Shown: one piece after another, positions 1 through 13,430 of the stretch
How the letters are laid out: every line of letters begins with the position of its first letter
How positions within the stretch are numbered: position 1 is the first letter of the stretch
Assembly (NCBI GenBank): GCA_029975625.1
Contig: JARKOR010000255.1
Span: forward strand, 1-13,430
Length of the DNA: 13,430 nucleotides
DNA from: Nanosynbacter sp.
Lineage (GTDB): Bacteria > Patescibacteriota > Saccharimonadia > Saccharimonadales > Saccharimonadaceae
Direction of reading: 5' to 3'
Translations under genes and position numbers: made by a program
The notes under the pieces: model-generated
Seen by the model: only the letters and a program-made list of their open reading frames with translations
The model's database searches: none
What the model was told of the DNA's origin: nothing

Positions 1-185
1 AAATCCGCAAGGAAAACTACCACCGGATAGAACGCTGCTACGGCCCGTTCCAGCGGAGCTTCTCCCTCCCCCAGTCCATCGACCGGGAGCACGTCAAGGC
101 GGTCTGCGACAAGGGGGTGCTGACCATCACCATGCCGAAGAGAGAAGAAATCAAGCCGAAACAGATAACTGTGGAAGTGACGTGA
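1..185 (+). CDS. Small heat-shock protein (Hsp20/alpha-crystallin family), 3' end only
   Basis: The open frame enters from the left edge (first full codon at base 3) and ends at TGA 183-185, leaving 60 residues of the C-terminus. Seen: the fragment has the late alpha-crystallin-domain segment, with YGPFQRSFSLP followed by the conserved GVLTITMPK strand and a basic tail ending in KQITVEVT. The tail's ITV fits the I-x-I/V motif that members of this family use to dock onto a neighbouring dimer. Known role of the family: ATP-independent cytoplasmic holdase that binds unfolding proteins. The gene is convergent with the minus-strand operon, and a strong terminator follows 37 bp after its stop, so it is a separate transcription unit. 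The start and any heat-shock promoter lie outside the window. Confidence 0.93.
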   Translation, partial: IRKENYHRIERCYGPFQRSFSLPQSIDREHVKAVCDKGVLTITMPKREEIKPKQITVEVT

Positions 186-222
186 GCTTCACGTAAACCC
201 AAAAACACCTCTGCTGTTACCA

Positions 223-252
223 GGGGCCGGATTTCTCCGGCCCCTTTGTTTG
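223..252 (+). terminator. Rho-independent terminator after hsp20
   Basis: A perfect 9-bp stem (GGGGCCGGA at 223-231, TCCGGCCCC at 236-244) closes a TTTC tetraloop and is followed directly by TTTGTTTG. The stem is GC-rich and the T tract lies on the plus strand, so it ends hsp20 transcription. Read on the minus strand the same stem is followed by TGGTAACAGC, with no U tract, so it is not an equally good terminator for the convergent operon. Confidence 0.9.
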
Positions 253-308
253 CGGGTGCTCCCGGGAGAACAATGGAAGGCGAGGGTCGCCCCTTCTTGA
301 ATCCTTCC

Positions 309-2792
309 CTATTCAATCGCCTCCCACGGGCAATCGGGTTCTTCGGGATAATTGTGGTTGTCGTATATTACACCGGCCCCTCCCCACATCTTTATGCCGC
401 GCATTCCGTACATGCTTGGGTACGTGCTGTCGTCGTTTCTGACCGCGGCGCCGAGATAAGTGTCGTTATCCGGCAGATGGACCCAAAGATCCTCATCCTC
501 GGGCGACATGGCCCGCCACAGGTCGCTTATGTTATACCTGAAAGAGTAATCGGTCAGGATGTACCCCAGTCTTCTGTATGCGCCTGCAGAAAGAGCCGAG
601 CCGCCCGATAGATTATACGTAGTCGGAGATGCTGTTACGACAGTTCCCTGGGTGGACGAGCCCCGGTAATAGATATCGGTAAGCTCATGAGGGAAAATAT
701 CGCTTTCATCGGCAAGGCTGTTCCCGTTATCGTCTACCGCCGCCAATGCCTCGGGACTGCCGGAGACATACCAATTCCCTTTGATGCACACTTTGTCGGT
801 GTTGTTGAAAAGATCGACCGGAGTGGGTTCGGAGATGTCGCGATAGCCGACGGCAGAGATGACGGGGGCGCCTTCGGCGCTCGCGCCGGAATAGATGACG
901 TTGAGCTCGACATGGGTCGCGTTGTAAGGCAGCGGGACCGATGACAGGTCAAAGACCAGCTCCACAGGCGTCCCTTGCGGGAGAGCTGCCACGCCGTTGG
1001 CTTCCGGAATCCTGATGAGATATGCCGCACCGTCCTCCGGCTCGGTCTCAACGGGTTCGGACTGAAACGGGAAGGATTTCGCCTCGCGGTATTCCAGCGC
1101 AAGCTCAAACTTGCCTCCAGGTAATGACAATCCGCCGGGAATATCCGTAGTTACGGCAACCCTCAGTTCCGGAAAAGCGTTTTCCGTTGTTGTGGTTTTG
1201 GCGTAAACGCCGGTGGAGGGAAGGGAGATATGGAAGTCCGTGGCGATGCCTTCGATGGGTTCAAGCTTACTGACGGCAACCGAGCCCGCCTCGTTGCCGA
1301 GTTGCCCCTTAAAGACGAGTTGCATCGTCATGTCGCTGAAGAAATGAGGCAGCGGGTCGTTGGAGAAATCGAAAGTAAGTTCAACCGGGTTCGATAGGTC
1401 TATGTTCTGGGGGTTAGAGACTTTATAGATGTAATCTGACGGGCTGGTTCCCTCAGTCGGATAACCAAGGAGATACTTGTTTCCTCTCAAAGCTGTTTCC
1501 GCGAGTGGCTTGTAGCGAATTACCAGTGTCGCTTCACCGGTACCCAAGTTTTCACCGGGGGTGTCGTTCTGCGCCATTATTTTCACCGAACGGAAACTGA
1601 TATCGTCGGGGGTGGACGATACGTTGATTTTACCTCGAAAGAAGTAGTCGAGGATTGCGGCGGAGTAGCCTACGGCTTTCGGCAGTATTTCATTTGCATA
1701 GGTTTCGTGCACATTATTATCCAGCCACACTTCCTTAATCTGGGGATTGCTGATAGACGCTTCCGCTTCGCTGTTGATCAGGCTGAGTGCGGCAAAATGA
1801 TCAACGGCCTCTCCGTTCTGTGGGCAAGCCTTTCTGCTGACGTATTTGGTAGGTCTTGACGAGCCGGCCAGATTGTCAACACATATGAACTGATTGGCAT
1901 GATCAACATTGATTTGCGGTAAAGGAAATGCATGCTCTGCTGAAGGTTTGTTGTTTGGGATGGTTTCGTCACTGAAGTAATTGGCATTCGTGAATTCGGC
2001 CAAGCCGGGGATTGATCCGTTTTGGTTGGTATCCCAAAAGTCGGTTAGACGGCCGCCTTCGAAAACAGGAATCTCGGAAGCAATTATCTCAGGTGTTATT
2101 CTTGCAATAAGACCTGGATTAACCTGGACGTAATATTCAAAAGGGTTTCCAAACCACTTGGTCGGATTCATTGAGTTTACTCCGTTAAAACTCAGGTGGG
2201 ACTTAAAGTCGTTCCTAACGTGAGCAGGCACCGCCATGTCCTCCAAAAGGTGCAACACCTGTCCGACGGAACGGAATGTCTTCACGAAATTGCTCTCTCT
2301 GTCAACCGCGCCGGTCGCGGTCAATGCCTGATAGAAATAGGCTCTAGCGTTGTCCCATCCCATAACCTGCCCATTTCTAGATTCCGACACCCCGTCCCGA
2401 GAAGTGTACCCAGTCGCCCAGGTTATGTTTGAATAGCGAGACCAGGATGAACAATACAGGTTTATCCACCAAGGCGAATCTGTCATAAAAGATTGGTCCC
2501 ACAGTAGGTGTGGATTGTGGAAATGGTTTGAGGCGCGACACATGGGAGTGTCTTCCAAATAACTACCTTCTTTTAGCCACCAGGAAATTGAATTTCCATT
2601 TATAGAATATGAAACTCCTTCATCAAATCCAATATAATTTTTAACATATCCTGTCAACTGTGAGGCTTCTATTGCTCTTTCAGTTAATGCTCTATGACTC
2701 AATTCATTATCAAACGAATAAGAGGTAACCGCATTACTTAAAATCATTGCTGTTACAAAAGCTATTATTCCTCGGCGAAATAGTATTTTCAT
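309..2792 (-). CDS. Secreted zinc-dependent phospholipase C/P1-nuclease-like protein with duplicated C-terminal beta modules
   Basis: 827 residues. Residues 1 to about 26 form a Sec signal peptide (basic MKILFRRG, then a hydrophobic run), so the product is exported. Residues 27-390 resemble the zinc-dependent phospholipase C/S1-P1 nuclease fold. Possible ligands are H33 in SHRALTERAI, D81, H90/H92 in NHFHNP, and H181, D185 and H191 in HLLEDMAVPAH. That last spacing, HxxxDxxxxxH, matches ligands H118/D122/H128 of Bacillus cereus PLC from memory. The core closes with GYSAAILDYFFRGKI (375-389). Residues 401-523 and 532-662 are two copies of a beta module, and 663-827 is an unrecognised Trp/Tyr-rich tail. 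The substrate (phospholipid, nucleic acid or none) is unknown, and the equivalents of PLC H142/E146 are not obvious. The ATG is preceded by AAAAGGGG 8 bp upstream. It is the last gene of the operon, 15 bp after the lipoprotein stop. Confidence 0.72.
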   Translation of the reverse strand: MKILFRRGIIAFVTAMILSNAVTSYSFDNELSHRALTERAIEASQLTGYVKNYIGFDEGVSYSINGNSISWWLKEGSYLEDTPMCRASNHFHNPHLLWDQSFMTDSPWWINLYCSSWSRYSNITWATGYTSRDGVSESRNGQVMGWDNARAYFYQALTATGAVDRESNFVKTFRSVGQVLHLLEDMAVPAHVRNDFKSHLSFNGVNSMNPTKWFGNPFEYYVQVNPGLIARITPEIIASEIPVFEGGRLTDFWDTNQNGSIPGLAEFTNANYFSDETIPNNKPSAEHAFPLPQINVDHANQFICVDNLAGSSRPTKYVSRKACPQNGEAVDHFAALSLINSEAEASISNPQIKEVWLDNNVHETYANEILPKAVGYSAAILDYFFRGKINVSSTPDDISFRSVKIMAQNDTPGENLGTGEATLVIRYKPLAETALRGNKYLLGYPTEGTSPSDYIYKVSNPQNIDLSNPVELTFDFSNDPLPHFFSDMTMQLVFKGQLGNEAGSVAVSKLEPIEGIATDFHISLPSTGVYAKTTTTENAFPELRVAVTTDIPGGLSLPGGKFELALEYREAKSFPFQSEPVETEPEDGAAYLIRIPEANGVAALPQGTPVELVFDLSSVPLPYNATHVELNVIYSGASAEGAPVISAVGYRDISEPTPVDLFNNTDKVCIKGNWYVSGSPEALAAVDDNGNSLADESDIFPHELTDIYYRGSSTQGTVVTASPTTYNLSGGSALSAGAYRRLGYILTDYSFRYNISDLWRAMSPEDEDLWVHLPDNDTYLGAAVRNDDSTYPSMYGMRGIKMWGGAGVIYDNHNYPEEPDCPWEAIE
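807..1592 (-). repeat. Duplicated beta-sandwich-like module inside the PLC-like protein
   Basis: Residues 401-523 and 532-662 of the 827-residue protein align along their length. Both begin with a short strand, a TDIPG/NDTPG-type turn and a strand ending in YREAK/YKPLAE. Both later carry PVELTFDFSNDPLP or PVELVFDLSSVPLP, followed by a strand with QLVFKGQLGNEAG or LNVIYSGASAEG. This is an internal duplication visible at protein level, with clear divergence. No named family is assigned. A role as a binding or spacer domain is inference. Confidence 0.7.
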
Positions 2793-2807
2793 TTTAAGCG
2801 CCCCTTT

Positions 2808-3293
2808 TCATTGTGCCTTTTCAAGCTCTTCCCACTTATAAGCAAGTGACATCATTTTGCCATAATGAGTTAAGGTATTTAAAAAATAAACATGTTGCTT
2901 ATGAGACATATTATTTGTAAACCGCTGCAGTTTTATGCTGAAATCATCTCTAACGAAGTCTTCACGCTTTGCCCAATCTGGGAATACATATAAATTATTC
3001 CAAGCGACATAACCTTTCTTGTAAATAGTTATACGTGGCGGATTAAGAAATGGGTCAAAAGGACTCGAAATAAAAATCATGCCATCTTTGTTGGTTAATC
3101 CTTCAAACACTGTATGAGGTTTAGTATAAGATAGTCCTAACCCGTATGTTTTAGTCCATTCCACCAAAACAACTGCGCCTTCAATTGGGTCTCCGGTTAT
3201 TTCATCCACAACCTTGCCATGTATTCCCGAATAGCAGCCAGCAAGCAGTATGAAAAATGTTATTATGATTAACTTGGCTCTGTTAGTAATCAC
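2808..3293 (-). CDS. Lipoprotein with carboxypeptidase-regulatory-like beta domain (paralogue B)
   Basis: 161 residues. A short basic start and hydrophobic run end in the lipobox LLAGC (Cys20), so the mature protein should be lipidated. The residue after Cys is Tyr, not Asp, so there is no obvious inner-membrane retention signal. Residues 24-48 (IHGKVVDEITGDPIEGAVV) have the pattern of carboxypeptidase-regulatory-like domains: a first strand, a TGDPI turn, then a strand. TIYKKGYVAWNN follows near residue 90. The start is GTG at 3291-3293. It has GGAGG at 3299-3303, 5 bp away, and the overlapping ATG is one base out of frame and meets TGA at once. The start overlaps the end of the upstream paralogue by 11 bp, which suggests translational coupling. 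Function unknown. Confidence 0.82.
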   Translation of the reverse strand: MITNRAKLIIITFFILLAGCYSGIHGKVVDEITGDPIEGAVVLVEWTKTYGLGLSYTKPHTVFEGLTNKDGMIFISSPFDPFLNPPRITIYKKGYVAWNNLYVFPDWAKREDFVRDDFSIKLQRFTNNMSHKQHVYFLNTLTHYGKMMSLAYKWEELEKAQ

Positions 3294-3825
3294 ATGTTCC
3301 TCCAGCTAGATTTTTTATTTCTTCAAAGGATTTAAGTGCTTCCCAGCGATAAGCATTTTTGAACAATTCTTTATGTTCGGATGCAGCCCATGAATGAATG
3401 GCACTGCTTATAAATGTGGTATGCGCATCATAGGAATATTCCGATTTAAACCTATCCAATTTAAATACATATCCATCCGACCATCTAAAATCTGTCCTTT
3501 TTTTGGAATCTGGAAAAATGTATTTGTTATTCCAGGCAACATAGCCTTTTCTGTAAATGGTGACATCTGGTGGATTAACTAGTGGATTGAAGACAGTAGG
3601 TATATTGATTATTCCATCGTTATTAGTTAACTCTTCAAATACTTCGTAGGATTTCGTATATGTCAGTCCTAATCCATATGTTCTTGTCCATTCCACCAAC
3701 ACCACCGCCCCTTCAATAGGATCCCCAGTTATACTGTCGACAACTTTGCCGTGTATACTTGGATAACAACCGGAGATCAGAAAAATTGACGCAATGATGA
3801 ACGGTTTAATTATTTGAAAGAACAT
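3283..3825 (-). CDS. Lipoprotein with carboxypeptidase-regulatory-like beta domain (paralogue A)
   Basis: 180 residues from the chosen start. The frame stays open upstream to a TTG at 3871-3873, but the ATG at 3823-3825 has AAGGAG at 3833-3838 with a 7-bp spacer and gives a proper lipoprotein signal (MFFQIIKPFIIASIFLISGC), so that start is preferred. The lipobox ends at Cys20. The rest parallels paralogue B: IHGKVVDSITGDPIEGAVV, VEWTRTYGLGLTYTK, then TIYRKGYVAWNN. It has a longer, more charged C-terminus with a terminal Cys (GGTCDY). The gene starts 52 bp after the stop of the giant gene and overlaps paralogue B. The domain is related in type to the regulatory-like modules inside the giant protein. 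Function unknown. Confidence 0.84.
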   Translation of the reverse strand: MFFQIIKPFIIASIFLISGCYPSIHGKVVDSITGDPIEGAVVLVEWTRTYGLGLTYTKSYEVFEELTNNDGIINIPTVFNPLVNPPDVTIYRKGYVAWNNKYIFPDSKKRTDFRWSDGYVFKLDRFKSEYSYDAHTTFISSAIHSWAASEHKELFKNAYRWEALKSFEEIKNLAGGTCDY

Positions 3826-3832
3826 GTCTTTT

Positions 3833-3838
3833 CTCCTT
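3833..3838 (-). promoter_or_regulatory. Ribosome binding site fixing the start of lipoprotein A
   Basis: Read on the minus strand this is AAGGAG, 7 bp before the ATG at 3823-3825. The longer reading, from TTG at 3873, would put 16 extra polar and basic residues ahead of the lipoprotein signal peptide, so this site decides the start. Confidence 0.85.
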
Positions 3839-3877
3839 TTGGTGGCAAATATGACCTTTTGATTAGCGATCAAGGTG

Positions 3878-6800
3878 TTAGAAACCCAGTATTTTCCAGA
3901 CTCCCCTTTCGTCTTTCACAAAGTTGAGAGGATAGGCATATTCACCACCGCTTTCCGCCCTTATTGCTCCTGCCTGAGCGGCTTTCCCTGTTGCGGTAAA
4001 CAGTTCGATTCTATTTATCTCCGTCAGCCTGGCTGAAATGCGTCTCGAAGGATCTGTAAAAATCAACCCAAATCTGCCGCGGGCACTTTGAACAAAATGG
4101 CTCAGCGCTGTTTCGATGTTACCCGCAAATACTGCTTGCCTCATATTTTCCCATCTGGTTCTTAAGAGACTCTCCAATTGGCTTTTAGACTGCACCGATA
4201 TCATTACAGAATCAGTATATGTCACTCCATCCGGTCCTTCGGCAGAGGCGATGACGATGTATGCTCCTTCCACCATCAGATTAGCTGTATACTCAGTCGG
4301 AATTGACCCTTGCGCCAAGGTTACCGGCACCGGACCGGAAATTGATATTGAGGGATTGCTGACAATGAAAGAGCCGTCCAAGCGTAAGTATACGTCAACT
4401 GGAGCGGCGCCCGCTTCCACGTTGGGAATGATGCGCAGGAAATGGCCCGGTTGAGAAGTGACCGTTCGAGTTGCCGTCGCAGTAAGTCCGTTCACATCCG
4501 TGGCCGTTACGGCAATCGTATTCTGCCCCTCCTGCAATGGCACGCGGTTGACGATGAAGCGGCTGCCGGAAACCGTGGCCGGCATGCCGTTCACGGTAAT
4601 GCCGGTTTCCGCGCCGGTGGAGTTGACAAAGGCGCCCGTAACCGTCACATCAGGCCCGGTGATGGTCGCGCCATCGGCCGGCGATTCGATGTATACGTTG
4701 AGGATGGGCGGGACATCTTCGATCCCACCTTTGCCGTCGGTCAATTCCGCGAACCTGCCGGCGAAAGCTGTTCTCAGCGTCTCTATTGCCGGTAGGGCGG
4801 CAGACGGGTCGTCCCCCGGCCGGACGAGAAGAACGAACCCAAGCTTGAATTTCTTCTGTGAGGCTGTCGAATCCGGTATCCTCGCGCCTTCGGCGGCGAT
4901 GATCTCGTCAATGGTCACGGTCCTGGAGGTACCGGTGACGGTGGCGCCCGGTTGCGGAAGCTGGTTCTTGTCTATGGCTGGATTCTCGATCAGTAGCATC
5001 GGCGGCACCTGCTCTTTCGGGATCATCCCCATCAGGTACAGGTCCAACGGGCTGAATCCGCTCATGGCTGTTATGGAAGTGAAAGATCCATCTCCGTTGT
5101 CCTTCCATCCGTTGCCGTACATGAGCGAACCCTTGCCGTCCAGCAGGTAACTCCAGTGGGCGCTGTCACGACCAATTAAGCCGGTGTTAAGCGTGTTGTC
5201 GGGATTCATGAAACGAACATAGGCTCCGAATCGATGCATCAGCTCGTGGTTGAGCGTGGTCAGGGTTGTATCCAGCTTCGGCCCGTAAGGGTTTGCGGCA
5301 AGGCTTGACACATTCCCCATGTCGATGGTCCCCTGAAGCCTACCGGGACTGCCGAATGATCCAGAGTTGTCGAAGACGGGTCGATTTATCCCCTGAATGT
5401 CGTTTTGCACCTCCAGGTAGAAACCCTGGGCGTCGGTTTCCGGGAGGGCATAGTCAAAGGTGGAGAGAATAACCAGGAAGTCGAGATCGCCGTGAGACTT
5501 GAAGTACTCCTTGGCTACCGCCTGACGCGGCTGGTCGTTGATCGAACCGTCGGTTTGCTTCGCGTCATAGGTCCCTGCGGCCTCCATTACAGTTACATTC
5601 CCGGTATCTCCAAGATTGCGAACCGCGAAGGTTGCGAGGGAAATTTCCATGCTCACAATCTCTCCTTGTCCGATGGTACGGCTGAACGAGTGTGGCAGGT
5701 AACCTTCCTTGCTGATCTTCCCTGATGCGGGTCCGGGAGACAGTCCGGTGATATTAAAACGACCATCCGTGTCTGTCGACGCATCATATACAATTCCCAC
5801 TGCGTCGGTAACCGTAACATTGACGGAAGAAATCGGAAGCCCGTTGCTTGCGTCGGTTACGGTCCCATGGATAGTACCGCTGGGGTCAAAGGTGATAGTC
5901 ATACTCTTTTCGGCGCTTTGACCGTACTGGTTGCTGGCAACCGCGACTATTCGAACCGGGCCCGCGCTAAGGGGGACGGCTATTGCGAACGAGTCGTTGA
6001 TAATGGCAGCTGAGTGAATGGTGACAACCCCGTTGATGGTGATGTTTACGGTTACGTTGTCGGCGTTTTGTGCAGTGCCGGTTACCGTAAGCGGAGATGA
6101 AGTGATAAGCACGCCATCTGCCGGCGAGACGATATTCAATGTCACGGTTGCCAGAGACATTACAACGCTGACCACACCCGTCTGGCCCGGAGAGAGTACG
6201 CCGCTCTCAGACCTCGTCGTCAAGCCGAGTCCCTCGAAGGTGATGGTGTAGTTGCCCGGTATGATACCGTTAACAATGTAATTCCCTTGGCTGTCGCTGA
6301 CACAGCTTTTGGTGCCCACGGCATCGGTTACCTTCACTACAACACCCGCCAGCAATCTGTTGTCGGATAATGTGATGTTACCCTGGAGCGATGCGGGCGT
6401 GAGCTTTACAAGGCCCGTGTTACGGTTGATGTTATGGCCCGGCGTCAACGCTCCATTTTCGGAAGTTGTTGCGTATGCCGGCTTTTCAAAGGTAAGGGTG
6501 TAATTTCCGTCAGGCAGCGACGGGAAGGTATAGAAGCCGTTGGCGTCGGAAATCGCGGTCAGAGTACGGCTGAAAGCAATGCTGAACTGGTCTGTGAGGA
6601 GACTTCCGTTTGGGGAGGATAGGTTTTCTACGATGAACTCGACCCAGCCGTTCTGATCATAATAGCCTGTCGCGCCGGCTGGTACTGTTTTTTCAATAGT
6701 GAGAAACGAATCACCTTTTGTGAAGATGAAGTAGTTACCATCAGGGTATGCGTCTCCTTCACTTGAGGCGATGAGCGTTCCGCCATATTCACGCGATCCG

Positions 6801-9800
6801 GTCGTACGATTCAACGCCGATATCCCCAATATGTGCTGACTATCACCAACCATCCGCAAATAGGGAGGTTCACCCATGGCCGGTCCGGAAACATCAGGCT
6901 GATCGTCGATATATGTTTTAAATACCAGGGACGAGTCTATACGGTTCCAGATGCCGTTATTTCTAACAAAGGCAGGTGTGTTTGCCTGAGCGGGGCCATT
7001 TGTCCAATAGATGTGCTTGAAATAGGGTGGATCAACATAATGACCCTTGATGACAAGGTAGTACTGTTGTCCCGCTGCAAGTGTGACAGGGATCGGAAAG
7101 TTGAACTCATCTTGACAGAAGTGCAGAGTGATGAGCGAAATATATTTTAACTCAGATTCAGCAAGAACATTCTCTGCACCGCCATCCAGGGCGGATCTTA
7201 ATTGTACATATATTAGTTCTCCCGTATTCCAGTTATATGATTTGCCAGTGTCCATAAACATGACTTTTGTTAATGACCCACTTCTTGTGGGAACGAATGC
7301 CTGGGCAAGATATTCGTCGTCGCTGAACACGCTGGTTCCGACCCACCGCACGGTGAGCGAGTCATTTGAGCCGTAAGGAGCTCGAACCCTGAAGGTCATA
7401 TACTGGTAGTCACCTCCCGGGCTGGTGCAGCGGAACCTAGCGCCGTCATCGGTCGTAACCGTTTCGTAGTCCGAGGCGCTGAGGTTGCTGAAATAACAGG
7501 AGTAGAGCATGTCTGAAGGGTCCTTGCTCGTGATGCCGCTAAGGTTCAGGGTGACCGTGACGCCTTGCAAGGGGGTACCATGCTCCATATCCGTCACTGT
7601 GCCGCTGATGGAGCCTAATTCGGTAAGTATAATGGTAAACGATTTGGTTGCTGTCTGGTTGTTGGCATCCTTCACTTGTACGGTAAACACGCTGGTACCC
7701 AAGAGTGAAGGGGTACCGCTGATTATGCCTTCACTGCTGAGAATAAGCCCTTCAGGCAGAGCTCCGTCCGTCACGGACCACGTGAATGGAGGCTTGCCGC
7801 CATTTGCGAGCAACGTCTGGTTGTATGCGAACCCTGCATACCCGTCGTGGGTGTTGTCTGAGGTGATGACCAGTGTGGAATGGATGTTTACGGTGAGCGA
7901 TTTTATGTCGGCTTTATTGTTCGCATCCGTCACTTGAACAGTGAGTGTGCTGATCCCGGCGGTGGTCGGGACGCCGCTGATTACCCCTGAGTCGCTGAGA
8001 GTGAGTCCTTCAGGCAGCGCGCCACTGGCGAGGGAGTAAGTGTACGGCATTTTACCCCCTGATGTCGCGATTGGCTGACTGAAAGCGATACTGACGTAAC
8101 CGTCGGGCAATGCGTTGGTTTGAATTTGCGGCAGCGGCAAGGTTGATATCGAGAATGATTTCGTAACAACGGAATTATTACCGTCTTTTACCTGAATGGT
8201 AACGTTACTGTTCCCGATGGTAGAGGGCATTGTTCCACTGATAGTACCGGTTGCGGAATCTAATATAATACCGGTTGGCAGGCTGCCGCTTGCTATCGAC
8301 CAGCTGTATGGGACTTGTCCTCCGGCTGCCTCTAAGGTCTGGCTGTATGTTGTGGCTGCGTAACCATCCGCGAGTGTGGTTGTCTTGATCTCGAAGGGGG
8401 TTTTGACGTTCAGCGTAATCGTTTTAGACGCCGTGGTGTTGGAAGCGTCTCTGACCTGGAAAGTGACGGTGCTGCATCCGGTCGTATTTGGCTTTCCAGT
8501 GATCACCCCGGTGACGCTGTTCAGCGCAAGCCCGTCAGGAAGGCTCCCGCTGATGATCGACCAGCTATAGGGGGTAATGCCGCCCGTTGCCGACAGTCTC
8601 CGGTTGTAAATGCGGCCTTGATAACCGTCATCCAGGGATGACGTGGAGATGCTTAATGGAAGGGGCGCCGTGGTAAAGCTCCAGGAAACATCGCTGGTCA
8701 GTCGCATGCCTGCCAGGTCCTTTATTCCCCGGCTGAGGAGTCCCTTGATTGAAGCTCCGGCCGGCATGGGCGCCGTCGGAACGAATGTGGCCGTGAGAGT
8801 TGCCGGCTCCCAGCTTACCGAACCGTCCAGAATAGGCTCGTACGGTGAAATCGGAGTTGCTGCCTGGCCGAGGCCGTTATCCCCCCAGCCAATAAGTGCG
8901 CCGTCACTCTTCAGAACAACCGTGTGATATCCACCCGTCGCAACAGCCACAGCGCCGACAAGGCCCTCAGGTACTGTTGTCTGCCCATATTCGTTATAAC
9001 CCCAGGCGATAACAGTACCGTCGTTTTTTAAAGCTAATGAATGGTACCCGCCAGCTGCAATCGCAATTACTCCAGACAAGCCTTCGGGTACCGAGGTTTG
9101 ACCATATTCGTCGTTACCCCAGGCGACGACCGTGCCGTCGCTTCTAAGGGCAATCGAGTGATTCTCTCCTGCCGCAATCGCAATCACTCCTGACAATCCA
9201 CCGGGTACAGAGGTCTGGCCATACTCGTTATAACCCCAGGTGACGACCGTGCCGTCAGTCTTCAACGCTAAAGAGTGGAACCCACCAGCCGCGATTGCGA
9301 TCACTCCGGACAGATCTTCGGGCGCAGAGGCTTGACCGGATTCGTTATATCCCCAGCCAATGACCGTGCTGTCGTTCTTCAAGGCTAACGTGTGGTATCC
9401 GCCCGCGGCAATCGCTAGTACTCCAGTCAGTCCTTCAGGAACGGTACTCTGGCCGTCATCGCCTTCTCCCCAAGCGACGACCGTTCCGTTACTTCTTAAT
9501 GCTGCCGAATGGTCTCCGGCCGCTGAAATCGCTGTTACGTCAGACAATCCTTCCGGAACCTTCGCCTGGCCATATTCGTTCCCTCCCCAGGCGCGGACCG
9601 TACCGTCACACTTAAGTGCCAGGGTATGGGAAATACCTGCCGCAACCGCAGCAGTAGCGGATAGCCCCACAGGTACTGTAGCCTGACCCATTCCGTCATA
9701 ACCCCAGACGATGAGTTCACCGTTGCTTTTCAACGCAATAGAGTGGGTATCGCCGCCGGCAATAAAAATTACATCGGACAGCCCCTCAGGGGCAGCGGTC

Positions 9801-12800
9801 TGGCCCAAATCGTCATTACCCCAAGTAATTATGGTGCCATCTTCTTTGAGGGCCAGAGAGTGCCATCCCCCGGCCGCTACCGCTATAACCCCGGACAACC
9901 CCTCGGGAACAGCCGTTTGGCCGAAATCGTTATAACCCCAGGCAACGACGGTGCCGTCGCTTCTAAGGGCAAGCGAGTGATCTCCGCCGGCTGCAACCGC
10001 AACCACTTCGGATAATCCCGAAGGTACATTAGTCTGACCTTGCACGCCATAGCCCCAGGCAAGGACCGTCCCATCGTCCTTCAGGGCGAGGGAGTGATTT
10101 CCTCCGGCGGCAATGGCGATCACCCCGGACAATCCGTCGGGAACAGCCGTTTGGCCGAAATCGTTATAACCCCAGGCGACGACAGTGCCGTCACTCTTCA
10201 GTGCAAGTGAATGATAACCCCCGGCCGCTACCGCTATAACCCCGGACAACCCCTCGGGAACAGCCGTTTGGCCGAAATCGTTATAACCCCAGGCAACGAC
10301 AGTGCCGTCACTCTTCAGTGCAAGTGAATGATACCCATCGGCTGCTACCGCTGTCACTCCGGACAAACCCACGGGGATAGCGGTTTGCCCAAAATAGTTA
10401 TCGCCCCAGGCAACGACTGAACCGTCATCTCTCAATGCTACATTGTGGCCGTACCCTGCCGCCACTCGCGTTACCAGTAAATTTCTGGAGATGATAAAGC
10501 TGCCATTCGTGATAGTTGCCGGATGTAGCTCTGAATTGAAGGTTGCGGACACATTGTCGGCGGCAACATTGACCGCATTCGGCAAGGGCGATACGCTGGT
10601 TACCGACAGGATGCCTTCGGTCCTGATGATGAGGGATTTATCCGCAGAGATCCCGTTAGCGTCCTTAAGCTGAAATGTCGGCATGTTGCTGCCGGCAATT
10701 GTCGGTGCGCCGCTTATGGTCCCGGTTGATGTATCCAGAGTGAGCCCCGACGGAAGTTTGCCCGCGGTTATCGCCCATGAATATGGTGGCCTGCCGGCAC
10801 TGGCGGTCAGGGTCTGGTTGTAAGGCGCGCCAATGTTGCCTGTCGCCAGACTTGCGGTGACTATAGTGGGGCGAGCATAATTGATTATGGTCAAAGCCCT
10901 GGTAGCCGTGCTGTTGTTTGCGTCCGTCACCTCTACGCTAAATGTGCAGCTTCCGACATCAGTCGGTATTCCGGTCATGGCTCCGTCAGCGTTGAGGCTC
11001 ACTCCGCCGGGAAGGCTTCCGTTGATAACTGCCCAAGAGTATGGGGGTGTACCGCCGCTGGCTGTCAGGGACTGACTATATGCAATGCCCGGATAGCCAT
11101 CCGCCAAGGTCAAGGTGGTTATGTTTACTGTCTTGGAATTTATTTGCAAGGTGAGCGCTTTGGTTACTGTCTTCTTGTTGGCATCCTTAACCTGGACAGT
11201 GAAGGTTTTCACCCCTACTGATGAGGGAGTGCCGCTGATGACTCCACTGCTCTTCAAGGACAGTCCCGAAGGAAGGCTGCCGCTCGTCTTTGACCAACTG
11301 TAGGGGGTCTTGCCGCCGCTGGCGGTCAATGTCTGGCTGTAAGCGAGACCGATATTGCCGTTTGGCAAAGCCGAAGTGGTGACTTGCAATGCAGTGGACG
11401 AGATCTTTGCAGTGCTCTCCGTCCCCACCTTTGACGAGAACGTCGCCGTCACGCTCTTAGCGGTATCCATGGTTACCCGGCAGGTTTCAATTCCTGAGCA
11501 TGCCCCCGCCCATCCTGAGAAACTTGAATTCCTGTCCGGCTCGGCGGTCAGGGTCACTATAGCCCCACGCTTGTAGGTTGCGCTGCCGGAATCGGCATCC
11601 CACTCAATCGTTCCTGTGTCAACAATAATTCTTCCAGCGCTGCCGGTCCTGTTGACGGTCAAAGGAACCGTTTGCCCGTCGCGGACCGGCCATACAAAGC
11701 TATTGAAGGATGTGTAATGATTCTCGATATCCGCTAATTTATCCCCGGTGAGCCTGAGGCCGCTCGGGCTGACATACCAGGCCTTGCCGGGTTTGCCCGT
11801 GACGTTGCTGGATGACCAGTAATGCTTGCGAATATTGATGAATCCGTGCGAGGTAAGCCAGAGAGGTGGATTGTCATCACCGTGGTTGACCAATGATACC
11901 AGCTCATTGCAACTGGGAAGTCGCCAGTCGGAGAAACCGAGGTATTTTTCCAGATTCAGTTTTTCCAGGTAGCTTTCGGCGTCCCCCCAGGAAACCGCTC
12001 CCTTCATGTCCGTGCCGGCATATCCGTAGTATGGGTCACGGGTTGCCATCAGGTTTGCGTCCCTGGCCCAGATCAGTCTGCTTAAATTGTCGGTAAGGGT
12101 CTGGTTACCGTTGTCGGTAAAACGTGGAACAGGCCAGATTGTCCCAATCCTCAATTCTCCATCCTGTCCCGTCCCGGCGCACGGCTGCGCGGTACCGTTT
12201 TCGCCGTGACAGGTGGTTTGTCCCGTTACGGGCAGATTAATTAATGACGGATCCGTTTGTCCGCCACGTACAGGCCAGACATAGCATTCGCCGGATTTCA
12301 GATGGTCTTTTATTGTACCGGCATTCAAGTCCAACACCCACGCGGTGTTAGGTTGCATGAGTCCGGTGCTTGAAGACCAATAAGGGTAAGCAGTTACATC
12401 GTCAAAACCTTGTTGTCTCAACCATGCCGGGATTCCGGTTTCTTCGTGGTAAGCCAGCGAGTAAAGCTCTTTCAGGTTCGGAAGCCTCCAATCATCGAAA
12501 CCCAGATAATTTTCAGCGTTGAGTTTCCTGATATATTCCAGCGCATGTTCCCATGTGACCGCACCGTCACCGCTTGTTGCGTCATTGTCGAACCCCGGAT
12601 CATGCCTCGAAATTGGGTTGGCGTTCTGCGACCATACCAAGCCCGTCAGACTATCCGTAACAGTGCCGTTGCCGTTATTGCTGAGTCGGGGATTCGGGTA
12701 CATCCGACCTTCCCTGATGTAGCCGGCATCGGTGATAGTGTAGTCGGGTTTCTGATCGTTTGTACGGTTAGAATTGGAATTGGCATGCGCACCGACAGAA

Positions 12801-12844
12801 TGCATTATCAACAGGAAAAGGACCGGGAATACAGTTTTATTCAT
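3878..12844 (-). CDS. Giant mosaic exported protein: DUF1566, putative-Ig, RCC1/BLIP-II-like propeller, regulatory-like and zincin-like domains
   Basis: 2988 residues, uninterrupted. The ATG has GGGAG 7 bp upstream. Signal peptide 1-21 is likely cut after AHA. Order of modules: DUF1566 at 57-198 and 237-391; divergent InlB-B-repeat-like module at 396-471 (GWAGACSG); putative-Ig repeats at 487-568, 574-655 and 659-741; Big_5-like half at 747-787; fourteen RCC1-type repeats at 791-1331; Big_5-like half at 1332-1392; putative-Ig repeats at 1396-1480, 1484-1567, 1572-1655 and 1657-1741; regulatory-like domain at 1744-1770 plus 2092-2148, with an insert at 1771-2091; regulatory-like domain at 2150-2230; Ig-like at 2234-2320; regulatory-like at 2323-2404; zincin-like region at 2406-2712 with HELMH at 2533-2537; glucodextranase-B-like Ig at 2715-2796; beta module to 2884; NTF2-like tail at 2885-2988. 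There is no LPXTG, lipobox or obvious transmembrane anchor after the signal peptide. Likely a large surface or secreted binding protein, perhaps a protease. It is the first gene of the operon. Confidence 0.9.
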   Translation of the reverse strand: MNKTVFPVLFLLIMHSVGAHANSNSNRTNDQKPDYTITDAGYIREGRMYPNPRLSNNGNGTVTDSLTGLVWSQNANPISRHDPGFDNDATSGDGAVTWEHALEYIRKLNAENYLGFDDWRLPNLKELYSLAYHEETGIPAWLRQQGFDDVTAYPYWSSSTGLMQPNTAWVLDLNAGTIKDHLKSGECYVWPVRGGQTDPSLINLPVTGQTTCHGENGTAQPCAGTGQDGELRIGTIWPVPRFTDNGNQTLTDNLSRLIWARDANLMATRDPYYGYAGTDMKGAVSWGDAESYLEKLNLEKYLGFSDWRLPSCNELVSLVNHGDDNPPLWLTSHGFINIRKHYWSSSNVTGKPGKAWYVSPSGLRLTGDKLADIENHYTSFNSFVWPVRDGQTVPLTVNRTGSAGRIIVDTGTIEWDADSGSATYKRGAIVTLTAEPDRNSSFSGWAGACSGIETCRVTMDTAKSVTATFSSKVGTESTAKISSTALQVTTSALPNGNIGLAYSQTLTASGGKTPYSWSKTSGSLPSGLSLKSSGVISGTPSSVGVKTFTVQVKDANKKTVTKALTLQINSKTVNITTLTLADGYPGIAYSQSLTASGGTPPYSWAVINGSLPGGVSLNADGAMTGIPTDVGSCTFSVEVTDANNSTATRALTIINYARPTIVTASLATGNIGAPYNQTLTASAGRPPYSWAITAGKLPSGLTLDTSTGTISGAPTIAGSNMPTFQLKDANGISADKSLIIRTEGILSVTSVSPLPNAVNVAADNVSATFNSELHPATITNGSFIISRNLLVTRVAAGYGHNVALRDDGSVVAWGDNYFGQTAIPVGLSGVTAVAADGYHSLALKSDGTVVAWGYNDFGQTAVPEGLSGVIAVAAGGYHSLALKSDGTVVAWGYNDFGQTAVPDGLSGVIAIAAGGNHSLALKDDGTVLAWGYGVQGQTNVPSGLSEVVAVAAGGDHSLALRSDGTVVAWGYNDFGQTAVPEGLSGVIAVAAGGWHSLALKEDGTIITWGNDDLGQTAAPEGLSDVIFIAGGDTHSIALKSNGELIVWGYDGMGQATVPVGLSATAAVAAGISHTLALKCDGTVRAWGGNEYGQAKVPEGLSDVTAISAAGDHSAALRSNGTVVAWGEGDDGQSTVPEGLTGVLAIAAGGYHTLALKNDSTVIGWGYNESGQASAPEDLSGVIAIAAGGFHSLALKTDGTVVTWGYNEYGQTSVPGGLSGVIAIAAGENHSIALRSDGTVVAWGNDEYGQTSVPEGLSGVIAIAAGGYHSLALKNDGTVIAWGYNEYGQTTVPEGLVGAVAVATGGYHTVVLKSDGALIGWGDNGLGQAATPISPYEPILDGSVSWEPATLTATFVPTAPMPAGASIKGLLSRGIKDLAGMRLTSDVSWSFTTAPLPLSISTSSLDDGYQGRIYNRRLSATGGITPYSWSIISGSLPDGLALNSVTGVITGKPNTTGCSTVTFQVRDASNTTASKTITLNVKTPFEIKTTTLADGYAATTYSQTLEAAGGQVPYSWSIASGSLPTGIILDSATGTISGTMPSTIGNSNVTIQVKDGNNSVVTKSFSISTLPLPQIQTNALPDGYVSIAFSQPIATSGGKMPYTYSLASGALPEGLTLSDSGVISGVPTTAGISTLTVQVTDANNKADIKSLTVNIHSTLVITSDNTHDGYAGFAYNQTLLANGGKPPFTWSVTDGALPEGLILSSEGIISGTPSLLGTSVFTVQVKDANNQTATKSFTIILTELGSISGTVTDMEHGTPLQGVTVTLNLSGITSKDPSDMLYSCYFSNLSASDYETVTTDDGARFRCTSPGGDYQYMTFRVRAPYGSNDSLTVRWVGTSVFSDDEYLAQAFVPTRSGSLTKVMFMDTGKSYNWNTGELIYVQLRSALDGGAENVLAESELKYISLITLHFCQDEFNFPIPVTLAAGQQYYLVIKGHYVDPPYFKHIYWTNGPAQANTPAFVRNNGIWNRIDSSLVFKTYIDDQPDVSGPAMGEPPYLRMVGDSQHILGISALNRTTGSREYGGTLIASSEGDAYPDGNYFIFTKGDSFLTIEKTVPAGATGYYDQNGWVEFIVENLSSPNGSLLTDQFSIAFSRTLTAISDANGFYTFPSLPDGNYTLTFEKPAYATTSENGALTPGHNINRNTGLVKLTPASLQGNITLSDNRLLAGVVVKVTDAVGTKSCVSDSQGNYIVNGIIPGNYTITFEGLGLTTRSESGVLSPGQTGVVSVVMSLATVTLNIVSPADGVLITSSPLTVTGTAQNADNVTVNITINGVVTIHSAAIINDSFAIAVPLSAGPVRIVAVASNQYGQSAEKSMTITFDPSGTIHGTVTDASNGLPISSVNVTVTDAVGIVYDASTDTDGRFNITGLSPGPASGKISKEGYLPHSFSRTIGQGEIVSMEISLATFAVRNLGDTGNVTVMEAAGTYDAKQTDGSINDQPRQAVAKEYFKSHGDLDFLVILSTFDYALPETDAQGFYLEVQNDIQGINRPVFDNSGSFGSPGRLQGTIDMGNVSSLAANPYGPKLDTTLTTLNHELMHRFGAYVRFMNPDNTLNTGLIGRDSAHWSYLLDGKGSLMYGNGWKDNGDGSFTSITAMSGFSPLDLYLMGMIPKEQVPPMLLIENPAIDKNQLPQPGATVTGTSRTVTIDEIIAAEGARIPDSTASQKKFKLGFVLLVRPGDDPSAALPAIETLRTAFAGRFAELTDGKGGIEDVPPILNVYIESPADGATITGPDVTVTGAFVNSTGAETGITVNGMPATVSGSRFIVNRVPLQEGQNTIAVTATDVNGLTATATRTVTSQPGHFLRIIPNVEAGAAPVDVYLRLDGSFIVSNPSISISGPVPVTLAQGSIPTEYTANLMVEGAYIVIASAEGPDGVTYTDSVMISVQSKSQLESLLRTRWENMRQAVFAGNIETALSHFVQSARGRFGLIFTDPSRRISARLTEINRIELFTATGKAAQAGAIRAESGGEYAYPLNFVKDERGVWKILGF
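3881..4192 (-). other. NTF2/SnoaL-like C-terminal tail of the giant protein
   Basis: Residues 2885-2988. The segment starts with a helix-like LESLLRTRWENMRQAVFAG and continues with an alternating strand pattern ending in DERGVWKILGF, the usual closing strand of NTF2-like cone folds (a W-x-I-x-x-F ending). No catalytic residues can be assigned. Its position at the extreme C-terminus of an exported protein could suit a secretion or anchoring signal, but this is inference. Confidence 0.5.
4193..4702 (-). other. Two Ig-like beta modules after the zincin-like region
   Basis: Residues 2715-2796 follow the glucodextranase-B-like Ig pattern: IESPADGATITGPDVTVTG, then VNGMPATVSGSRF, then LQEGQNTIAVTATDVNG. 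Residues 2797-2884 form a further beta-rich module (VDVYLRLDGSF through VTYTDSVMISV) with the rhythm of a PKD-like domain. The first has a relative earlier in the chain at 2234-2320 (IVSPADGVLITSSPLTVTG). These are spacer or binding domains with no enzymatic signature. Confidence 0.6.
4709..5629 (-). other. Zincin-like (HExxH) candidate metallopeptidase region in the giant protein
   Basis: Residues 2406-2712. LNHELMHRFGAY (2531-2542) contains HELMH with Glu2534 in the catalytic position, the standard HExxH motif of zinc metallopeptidases. It is preceded by DTTLTT and followed by an HW pair (H2563) that could supply the third ligand. SLMYGNGWKDNGDGSF comes next, and then SPLDLYLMGM (2598-2607), whose methionines sit where a Met-turn would be expected. 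Upstream, DLDFLVILSTFDY (2453-2465) looks like a core strand. The motif and its surroundings are seen directly. Peptidase activity and the third ligand are inferred, and no named MEROPS family is claimed. Confidence 0.6.
5633..7615 (-). repeat. Three carboxypeptidase-regulatory-like modules, the first one split
   Basis: Residues 1744-2404. Each module opens with a GxIxGTVTD-type strand (GSISGTVTDMEHGTPLQGV, LQGNITLSDNRLLAGV, GTIHGTVTDASNGLPISSV). Each later has a DxxGxY/F-type strand and a PxGNYT or GLSPG turn (SDANGFYTFPSLPDGNYT, SDSQGNYIVNGIIPGNYT, TDTDGRFNITGLSPG). The first copy is broken after NLSG (1770) and resumes at RTLTAISD (2093). An Ig-like domain (2234-2320) separates copies two and three. 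Modules of this fold usually act as structural or carbohydrate-contacting accessories. Confidence 0.78.
6572..7534 (-). other. About 320-residue insert inside the first regulatory-like domain
   Basis: Residues 1771-2091 lie between the two halves of one regulatory-like domain. The middle part (about 1835-1980) looks like the jelly-roll-like domain often annotated as choice-of-anchor: EYLAQAFVPTRSGSLTKVMF, then LIYVQLRSALDGGAENVLAES, then PVTLAAGQQYYLVIKG, and a closing strand near FKTYID. Residues 1981-2091 are a further beta-rich stretch ending QFSIAFS. Function unknown; a ligand-binding role is inference. Confidence 0.55.
7622..8659 (-). repeat. Second putative-Ig (He_PIG-like) array, four repeats
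   Basis: Residues 1396-1741 hold four repeats of about 84-88 residues. Each has DGY, then Y/F-x-Q-x-L near the start, a GG-x-x-PYSWS or PFTWS strand, SGSLPxGLxL or GALPEGL, a GxISGxP turn and VQVKDANN-type closing strands. They match the three repeats at residues 487-741 closely. Together they form a seven-repeat series interrupted by the Big_5-like domain and the propeller. They probably act as an extended stalk. Confidence 0.85.
8852..10474 (-). repeat. Fourteen tandem RCC1/BLIP-II-like repeats, 39 residues (117 bp) each
   Basis: Residues 791-1331. The repeat consensus is VAAGGxHSLALKSDGTVVAW, then GxNDFGQTxVPEGLSGVxA. Fourteen copies can be counted, and the repeat histidine falls at residues 800, 839, 878 and so on to 1307, always 39 apart, so there is not one insertion or deletion in the array. 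This is the RCC1-type beta-propeller repeat in its short bacterial form. The phrase WGDNxFGQTxVP followed by SGV and AxAAG also resembles the seven-bladed beta-lactamase inhibitory protein BLIP-II, recalled from memory. Fourteen is twice seven, so two propellers in tandem are likely. Such propellers bind proteins; the partner is unknown. Confidence 0.9.
9867..10333 (-). repeat. Near-identical DNA tracts within the propeller repeats
   Basis: An 83-bp tract at 9867-9949 is identical to 10218-10300. The offset is 351 bp, exactly three 117-bp units (units 5 and 2). Another tract of about 75 bp, near 10142-10216, matches 10259-10333 with a single difference, at a one-unit offset (units 3 and 2). 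Other units in the array differ at many silent sites. The pattern fits recent duplication or gene conversion among units 2, 3 and 5. Confidence 0.8.
10622..11386 (-). repeat. First putative-Ig (He_PIG-like) array, three repeats
   Basis: Residues 487-568, 574-655 and 659-741. Shared landmarks are GxxYxQxLTASGG or TASAG, PYSW, GSLPSGLSL or GKLPSGLTL, a GxISGxP or GAMTGIP turn and VKDAN or VTDANN. They are about 82 residues each and separated by short linkers. The array continues after the propeller with four further repeats. Confidence 0.85.
11432..11659 (-). other. Divergent InlB-B-repeat-like module
   Basis: Residues 396-471 of the giant protein. The pattern is LTVNRTGSAGRI, then RGAIVTLTAEP, SFSGWAGACSG, and TCRVTMDTAKSVTATFS at the end. 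These match the bacterial repeat often annotated as a divergent InlB B-repeat, which typically reads tltAxPxxGSxFxGWxGxCsG followed by a VTMdxxksVtAtF strand. The two cysteines at 449 and 455 could form a disulfide in the exported protein. Confidence 0.75.
11672..12676 (-). repeat. Two tandem DUF1566 modules at the N-terminus
   Basis: Residues 57-198 and 237-391. Both contain NGNxTxTDxLxxLxW, an ANxxxxRDP segment, GAVxW, YLGFxDWRLP, ELxSL, a YWSSS motif, an AWxxxxxxG strand and VWPVRxGQT. The linker holds two cysteines (TGQTTCHGENG, TAQPCAGTGQDGE), a style common in deltaproteobacterial DUF1566 proteins. The fold is related to C-type-lectin/formylglycine-type domains, so a surface binding role is plausible, but no ligand can be named. 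Confidence 0.85.
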
Positions 12845-12967
12845 GGATAAGCTCCCTTTGGAGGATGTGAGCTATGGGGTTCGTTTCGATTTTATAGGAT
12901 TGATGTTCACTTGTTTTTTTGAAGATGGCCGCCTCAATTTATAAAAATTATTAATTCAAAAAACGAA

Positions 12968-12996
12968 ATACTAGTATAACAAAATTTATGTGTCAA
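12968..12996 (-). promoter_or_regulatory. Sigma70-type promoter for the four-gene operon
   Basis: Read on the minus strand, TTGACA (12991-12996, a perfect -35) is followed by a 17-bp spacer and TAGTAT (12968-12973, 4 of 6 matches to the -10 consensus). Transcription would start near 12961 and give a leader of about 115 nt. The -10 lies in the perfect 10-bp palindrome ATACTAGTAT at 12968-12977, which could also serve as a repressor site or an opposing -10. Confidence 0.65.
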
Positions 12997-13084
12997 TATT
13001 TTATTAAATTAAAATTATGAAATTACTTGAGAGAACAAATGCCGTATTGCCTTGTCCGCCGCAACCTGCTAAAAAGAGACCTTT

Positions 13085-13110
13085 GTCCGCGGCGCCGGTC
13101 CGCCGCGGAC
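13085..13110 (+). promoter_or_regulatory. GC-rich hairpin in the DUF445 leader
   Basis: GTCCGCGGC (13085-13093) and GCCGCGGAC (13102-13110) are perfectly complementary across an 8-base loop. A small hairpin, CCCTT-CGCA-AAGGG at 13111-13124, follows immediately. There is no T run, so this is not an intrinsic terminator. It lies 46 bp before the DUF445 start and could affect mRNA stability or be a regulator site. A role is inference. Confidence 0.5.
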
Positions 13111-13156
13111 CCCTTCGCAAAGGGCTCGAAACCGAAACGGAAAACGAGGAGCGTTG

Positions 13157-13430
13157 ATGATCGACAAGAGACGTACCCTGAGGAAAAACAAGGCCCTGGC
13201 CGGCGGCATGATGGTGGTGGCCGCCATATTGTTCGTGGTCGCCCGATGGCACAAAGGGGCCGGCGGCTGGGAATGGGTCGGGGCGTTCGCCGAGGCCGCC
13301 ATGATCGGCGCCCTGGCCGACTGGTTCGCGGTGGTGGCCCTGTTCCGCCATCCCCTGGGGGTCCCAATCCCGCATACCGCCATCATCCCGAACAAGAAGG
13401 AGGCCATTGCCGACAGTCTGGCCGTGTTTA
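13157..13430 (+). CDS. DUF445 (YjiN-like) inner-membrane protein, 5' part only
   Basis: 91 residues are visible before the right edge cuts the gene. ATG at 13157-13159 has GAGGAG 5 bp upstream; the adjoining TTG is a possible but weaker start. A basic start ([17 protein letters not shown]) leads into a hydrophobic segment at about 16-29. The signature then reads [20 protein letters not shown], followed by [17 protein letters not shown]. This is characteristic of the DUF445 family, in which a conserved membrane hairpin precedes a long helical region. The function of the family is not established. The gene is divergent from the operon and probably unrelated to it. Confidence 0.9.

What the first reader, a model, noticed from the sequence alone, without database searches (positions are those of the whole stretch)
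8852..10474. Fourteen indel-free propeller repeats, exactly twice a seven-bladed BLIP-II-like ring
The array has fourteen copies of a 39-residue unit. The repeat His is at 800, 839, 878 and on to 1307 with no change in spacing. Seven units make one RCC1 or BLIP-II ring, so fourteen suggests two stacked or linked propellers. Units 6-8, in the middle, are the most divergent (for example SATAAVAAGISHTLALKCDG), as expected at a junction between two rings. BLIP-II is a protein inhibitor with the same short repeat, so this may be a protein-binding platform.
Basis: partly seen in the sequence, partly recalled or inferred. Interest (0 to 1): 0.7.

Follow-up and report, generated by a model that had tools for sequence, protein, structure and literature searches.

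The report
Two seven-bladed rings inside Ig domain
A giant, probably secreted bacterial protein carries fourteen similar repeats that are predicted to fold into two linked seven-bladed rings set in a loop of an immunoglobulin-like domain, an arrangement found again in related proteins, nearly always with exactly 7 or 14 repeats.

Summary
In detail: 14 gap-free units of 39 residues (window 10486-8849, minus strand; residues 787-1332 of a 2988-aa protein). The two-ring reading holds up. An AlphaFold2 model of residues 735-1400 (pLDDT 93, pTM 0.87) matches seven-bladed propellers over each half (BLIP-II, 246 residues, 1.4 A, over the second), and inside the array confidence is lowest at the unit 7/8 border. 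In relatives, unit numbers pile up at 7 and 14 (a few at 21), and 36 other 14-unit arrays are less conserved exactly at unit 7|8. Of 28 arrays flanked by both Big_5 halves, 9 have 7 units, 18 have 14, one has 11. Five homologous giant proteins keep 14 units although single units mostly no longer correspond: units turned over, the number stayed. Whether the array's last half-unit closes ring 1, so that ring 2 is nested in it, is open: aligned ranges point both ways. The fold and family (RCC1/BLIP-II) are known; the Big_5-mounted double ring is a new variant. Protein binding is plausible, not shown.

The parts
3878..12844 (-). CDS, 2988 aa, signal-like N-terminus, giant modular protein
   Evidence: ORF; domains; the signal peptide was read from the sequence, not tested with a predictor
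12266..12667 (-). first of two Lcl_C domains
   Evidence: 2 stretches, best 60-193
10487..10609 (-). N-terminal half of the split Big_5 Ig-like domain (Pfam positions 5-46)
   Evidence: 27.2 bits, cut-off 23.6
8849..10486 (-). array of 14 units of 39 residues
9722..10486 (-). main body of predicted ring 1 (units 1-6 and first half of unit 7)
   Evidence: most RCC1-like-domain rows (for example 4jhn_A, 7q40_A, 1a12_A) align to 53-55..306-308 of the model; similar
9653..9682 (-). unit 7/8 border, lowest confidence inside the array in the better model
   Evidence: block 321-330 has 85; it has 61, with a lower value only in the block at the array's end
8906..9691 (-). predicted ring 2 as matched by BLIP-II
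   Evidence: model 318..579 to 3qhy_B, rmsd 1.5 and 1.4; 324-325..578-579 for two other entries
8837..8905 (-). second half of unit 14 and a few following residues; may close ring 1 or ring 2 (open)
   Evidence: 11 of 11 UVR8 entries run from 49-55 to 600-606 of the model; a CR4 chain runs 332..597
8669..8803 (-). C-terminal half of the split Big_5 domain (Pfam positions 61-105)
   Evidence: 23.8 bits, cut-off 23.6
3890..5647 (-). conserved C-terminal module with HELMH at 5234-5248

Best explanation
The 14 units fold into two seven-bladed BLIP-II-type propellers with three-stranded blades, and the double ring as a whole is set into a loop of a Big_5 Ig-like domain, from which it stands out as a side-mounted head. 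The chain leaves one Big_5 strand, builds ring 1, crosses over near unit 7|8, builds ring 2 and returns to the next Big_5 strand. A detail that I favour only slightly (about 0.45): the last half-unit of the array closes ring 1, so that ring 2 is nested in it and both array ends lie together at the Big_5 hairpin. Shown: unit number and spacing, split Big_5, recurrence in relatives. Predicted: two rings. Inferred: the closure, and that the variable loop residues bind an extracellular partner (protein or glycan) for a scaffold that ends in a zincin-like module.
Against: No coordinates could be read; ring membership comes from first and last aligned residues only. Against nesting: three of three BLIP-II entries start at 318-325 and do not take up the third strand of unit 7 (310-314) as nesting would ask; CRINKLY/CR4 rows run 58..326 and 59..324 and 332..597, as plain tandem rings would; one UVR8 row ends at 355; rows 4qam_A 39..580, 1i2m_D 79..580, 3kci 85..579, 5t94_A 82..580, 4d4p_B 45..580, 4d4q_A 44..578 and 8ux1_L 70..599 mix both rings; P0147 and P0171 have their extra residues at the unit 7/8 border. 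Against counting in sevens: P0159 has 11 units by eye, P0192 (Big_5 in its Pfam list) 12 hits, and 13 of 119 arrays in loci have 8-12 unit-equivalents. Units i and i+7 are not more alike than other pairs. No binding data.
Confidence: 0.75

Rival explanations
1. The same two seven-bladed rings in Big_5, but in plain tandem: units 1-7 and units 8-14, each ring closed by its own strands, with the crossover at the unit 7/8 border.
For: CRINKLY/CR4 rows 58..326 and 59..324 and 332..597; BLIP-II rows lack the third strand of unit 7; the first strand region of unit 8 is less conserved in 29 of 36 arrays; P0147 and P0171 have extra residues at the border; 14-unit arrays such as P0135 and P0229 (first hit starts at column 22 or 21, last ends at column 18) fit simple succession.
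Against: In one search all 11 UVR8 entries extend to 600-606 of the model, not to about 325 (10 of 11 to 601-603); both array ends must reach one Big_5 hairpin; L044 has its insertion inside unit 7.
Confidence: 0.4
2. One closed 14-bladed ring or an open solenoid.
For: The 39-residue register is unbroken through all 14 units.
Against: Each half of both models matches seven-bladed templates at about 1.4-2.6 A; unit numbers cluster near 7, 14 and 21; conservation drops at unit 7|8. PMC9218822 section 12 gives 12 blades as the largest known.
Confidence: 0.03
3. The array is a neutral repeat expansion whose number has no meaning; 14 is chance.
For: Units 2, 3 and 5 are 81-91% identical in DNA, so copying goes on; one Big_5-inserted array has 11 units; 9-12 unit-equivalents occur in 11 of 119 arrays in loci.
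Against: 27 of 28 arrays with both Big_5 halves have 7 or 14 units; five complete arrays in homologous giant proteins all have 14 while most units no longer correspond; mean identity between units is 0.71, 0.78 and 0.41 at codon positions 1, 2 and 3.
Confidence: 0.05

Closest known systems
BLIP-II (Streptomyces beta-lactamase inhibitor, PDB 1jtd, 3qhy, 3qi0)
   Same: Closest solved relative by sequence: 9.9e-63, next family 1.2e-20; 47-48% identity over 245-246 residues at 1.4 A; seven blades of three strands (PMC6121496, passages seen), three strands per unit in the model too.
   Different: Single free ring, 273 residues in 1jtd_B; here two rings in one run, inside an Ig domain of a giant protein. 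No evidence of beta-lactamase binding.
UVR8 and RCC1-like domains (RCC1, RPGR, HERC2)
   Different: Lower sequence similarity (best 1.2e-20; 26-27% identity for UVR8); eukaryotic (recalled), matched as single rings.
Highly repetitive beta-propellers (Pereira and Lupas 2022, PMC9218822; abstract, section 12, part 1 of 2 of section 14 and passages seen)
   Same: RCC1/BLIP-II is 10% of their set, mostly bacterial; WD40 arrays peak at 7 and 14; a 15-unit WD40 array is predicted as 7+8; independent amplification of blades is described.
   Different: The parts seen do not describe RCC1 double rings, insertion in Big_5, or a kept number under unit turnover.
Tandem WD40 double propellers (Utp21 with Aip1, PMC3897721; Utp4, PMC5456268; passages seen)
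   Same: 14 blades in two rings; in both papers a strand from the chain's start completes the last blade.
   Different: WD40 family, eukaryotic; no Ig domain around them in the passages seen.
Bap1/RbmC adhesins (PMC10102183, abstract and passages seen)
   Same: Secreted modular proteins in which a propeller is a binding module.
   Different: Eight-bladed; binds a biofilm exopolysaccharide.

Membership tests
RCC1_2 / RCC1-BLIP-II propeller family | Profile match of every unit | tested here: met
   14 stretches, 451.6 bits against a cut-off of 22
RCC1_2 / RCC1-BLIP-II propeller family | Seven-bladed ring | tested here: met
   by prediction only: each half aligns to seven-bladed templates
BLIP-II | Closest by sequence; three-stranded blades | tested here: met
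   blade definition from PMC6121496
BLIP-II | Single free-standing ring | tested here: not met
   14 units inside a 2988-aa protein
BLIP-II | Inhibits class A beta-lactamases | not testable with these tools
   no assay
Big_5 Ig-like domain | Profile match, here of both halves around the array | tested here: met
   27.2 and 23.8 bits, cut-off 23.6, positions 5-46 and 61-105; modelled with block pLDDT 84-95 apart from the outermost 10 and 6 residues
RCC1 guanine nucleotide exchange factors | Ran exchange activity | not testable with these tools
   only the fold is shared

The most novel reading that the evidence does not exclude
A nested double propeller of RCC1/BLIP-II type mounted in a Big_5 loop whose unit number is counted by selection: homologous giant proteins keep exactly 14 units although the units themselves have been re-copied so often that position-by-position homology is mostly lost, so ring closure, not descent, fixes the number.
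Probability: 0.3. Interest if true: 0.65.

Novelty: new variant of a known kind. Interest (0 to 1): 0.45.

Why it matters
If right, these arrays are a natural experiment on how a fold constrains repeat copy number: the repeats turn over, yet closed multiples of seven are what survive. The same Big_5 site accepts one ring or two, which gives matched pairs for testing how a double ring closes and whether the second ring adds a binding face to a secreted bacterial scaffold.

Tried and rejected
Rejected or weak: that ring 2 is a copy of ring 1 (units i and i+7 are not more alike: protein p=0.16, DNA p=0.33); one 14-bladed ring or solenoid. Spacing irregularities at the middle: of 28 arrays of 14 hits in loci, 7 have an excess of 4 or more at spacing 7 against 0-3 at the other spacings, but the largest excess lies at spacing 7 and at 8 equally often, 3 each of 12; of 39 unit-phase arrays, 13 deviate by 2 or more at spacing 7 against 3-10 elsewhere. 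NCBIfam gave only sub-cut-off matches for the array. Rfam found nothing at gathering scores. Seven paper searches listed nothing that I recognised as a Big_5-inserted propeller, a double RCC1 propeller or a kept unit number under turnover; these are listings, and only that library was searched. Which half-unit closes which ring could not be settled: no coordinates were available.

Limits of the counts: proteins and loci were picked by similarity to a 14-unit query and the lists were capped (best 120 of 5806 and of 7989, best 80 of 358), so the share of 14 is inflated; the shortage of 8-12 is the informative part. Over 12 combinations of score and gap, 9-12 hits occurred in at most 4 arrays of the first protein set, and a gap of 90 merges neighbours into runs of 16-23. 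The Big_5-half profiles were built from 14 proteins with 14-unit arrays. P-values are not corrected for 56 tests or for kinship, and indels at the junction lower identity there too.

Full report
Observation. The minus-strand ORF 12844..3878 encodes 2988 residues. It holds 14 units of 39 residues at residues 787-1332, with the conserved His at 800 + 39n and no indel. Seven columns never change; identity at period 39 is 63%, while 200 shuffles reach at most 14%. Mean identity between units is 0.71, 0.78 and 0.41 at codon positions 1-3, so most units are old and their protein sequence was kept; units 2, 3 and 5 are closer (81-91% in DNA). Unit 7 and the end units 1 and 14 are the most divergent.

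Family. Pfam gives RCC1_2 (451.6 bits, 14 stretches) and WD40_RLD, the RCC1-like domain (404.7 bits). Among solved structures BLIP-II is far closer (9.9e-63) than the RCC1, SRM1 and UVR8 entries (1.2e-20 and weaker). The array lies within a Big_5 Ig-like domain. A piece of residues 735-795 (its last 9 residues already in the array) matches Big_5 positions 5-46 with residues 746-786, and residues 1333-1400 match positions 61-105 with 1348-1392; each is above the curated cut-off, the second narrowly (27.2 and 23.8 bits, cut-off 23.6). The rest of the protein has two Lcl_C stretches, one Flg_new_2, seven He_PIG, three CarboxypepD_reg and two Glucodextran_B stretches.

Unit numbers. A profile of the 14 units was run on relatives; numbers are unit-equivalents of arrays with three or more hits. 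602 arrays in 120 long proteins plus the window: 537 at 6-7, 18 at 13-14, one at 21, two at 8-12, 44 below 6. 209 arrays in 120 shorter proteins: 153 at 6-7, 35 at 13-14, six at 8-12, 15 below 6. 119 arrays in 80 genome loci: 43 at 6-7, 42 at 13-14, three at 21, one at 26, 13 at 8-12, 17 below 6; some lie at contig ends. All sets were chosen with a 14-unit query and capped. Arrays with a longer unit near 50 residues also show 14 (L086) and 21 (L063 twice, L076). In L066 the long spacings fall after units 7 and 14.

Junction. In 36 unit-phase 14-unit arrays other than the window (some from one protein), four places are less conserved than interior units: the first strand region of unit 1 (33 of 36), the second half of unit 7 (25 and 22 of 36, p 0.009 and 0.04), the first strand region of unit 8 (29 of 36, p=1e-5) and the last three quarters of unit 14 (28-29 of 36); p-values uncorrected. 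The array's middle is marked like its ends.

Big_5 insertion recurs. With profiles of both halves, 28 arrays in 19 proteins are flanked on both sides: 9 have 7 units, 18 have 14 (window included), one has 11; four more have one half only, among them one of 12 hits. P0159, with 11, is a genuine exception by eye. P0022 carries four 7-unit arrays of this type and P0047 three.

Kept number, exchanged units. The C-terminal module was searched alone: 155 proteins; of the 120 listed, 77 cover 98% or more of it. Four of the 77 list RCC1_2: P0248, P0283 and P0294 have 14 units between Big_5 halves, and P0241 begins inside the array, with three hits left and the C half. With the window and L044 there are five complete arrays, all of 14. 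Position by position the units correspond clearly between L044 and P0248 (own index best for 9 of 14). In the window's four comparisons it is 1-2 of 14 (p 0.01-0.24). Of the other five pairs, P0283-P0294 and P0283-P0248 keep a weak but significant trace (2 and 3 of 14), three pairs none. Without P0248, 27.7 of 56 units have their nearest neighbour in the same array (13.2 expected) and 0.5 at the same index elsewhere (3.1 expected); with P0248, 27.7 of 70 (13.2 expected) and 8.7 (4.1 expected). Unit turnover with a constant count fits the independent amplification that Pereira and Lupas describe (PMC9218822); five arrays are few.

Function. Columns 12, 13, 20, 29, 31, 32, 36 and 39 are the most variable (entropy 3.4-3.8 bits over 31 arrays, window included) on a conserved frame; column 13 is aromatic in 7 of 14 units here and in 34% of units over the 31 arrays. 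In the BLIP-II alignment the same column is aromatic in 6 of 7 units by my reading; that BLIP-II uses such residues for its target is recalled. A binding head is likely, its partner unknown. The 77 proteins carry other heads too: by the Pfam numbers listed (names recalled), 12 have FG-GAP/VCBS and 1 Kelch propellers beside 4 RCC1; for 60 of 77 I recognise no propeller. This suggests an exchangeable binding head on a conserved tail that has HExxHR in 77 of 77.

Verdict. Fold and family are known; the Big_5-mounted double ring with a kept count is a new variant.

Noticed in passing
window 3890-5647 (HELMH at 5234-5248): Conserved C-terminal module with an HExxHR motif in 77 of 77 relatives. Its only Pfam or NCBIfam match above cut-off is Glucodextran_B, and the PDB gave nothing better than E 0.36: a possible undescribed zincin-like family with swapped N-terminal heads.
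   Followed up: partly
window 1-13430 (contig G000:C84): The contig may be misbinned: the bin's relatives are genomes of 0.5-1.6 Mb and 0 of 40 of them has the C-terminal module. Tetranucleotide correlation is 0.29-0.48 to 7 readable bin stretches (9 of 16 read N) and 0.78 to the Nitrospirae locus L044, which is longer and homologous, so the comparison is uneven.
   Followed up: partly
window 2808-3293 and 3283-3873, minus strand: Two adjacent similar small genes with lipoprotein-like N-termini (read by eye) and sub-cut-off CarboxypepD_reg matches look like a tandem duplication next to the giant gene.
   Followed up: no
window 309-2792, minus strand: 827-aa protein with signal-like N-terminus; best Pfam match E 0.36, no NCBIfam match at 0.01.
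   Followed up: no
P0159 residues about 74-486: A genuine 11-unit Big_5-inserted array, the only exception to 7 or 14 among 28.
   Followed up: partly
L066, L063 and L076: A 26-unit array with longer spacings after units 7 and 14, and three 21-unit arrays with units near 50 residues: possible triple or quadruple rings.
   Followed up: no
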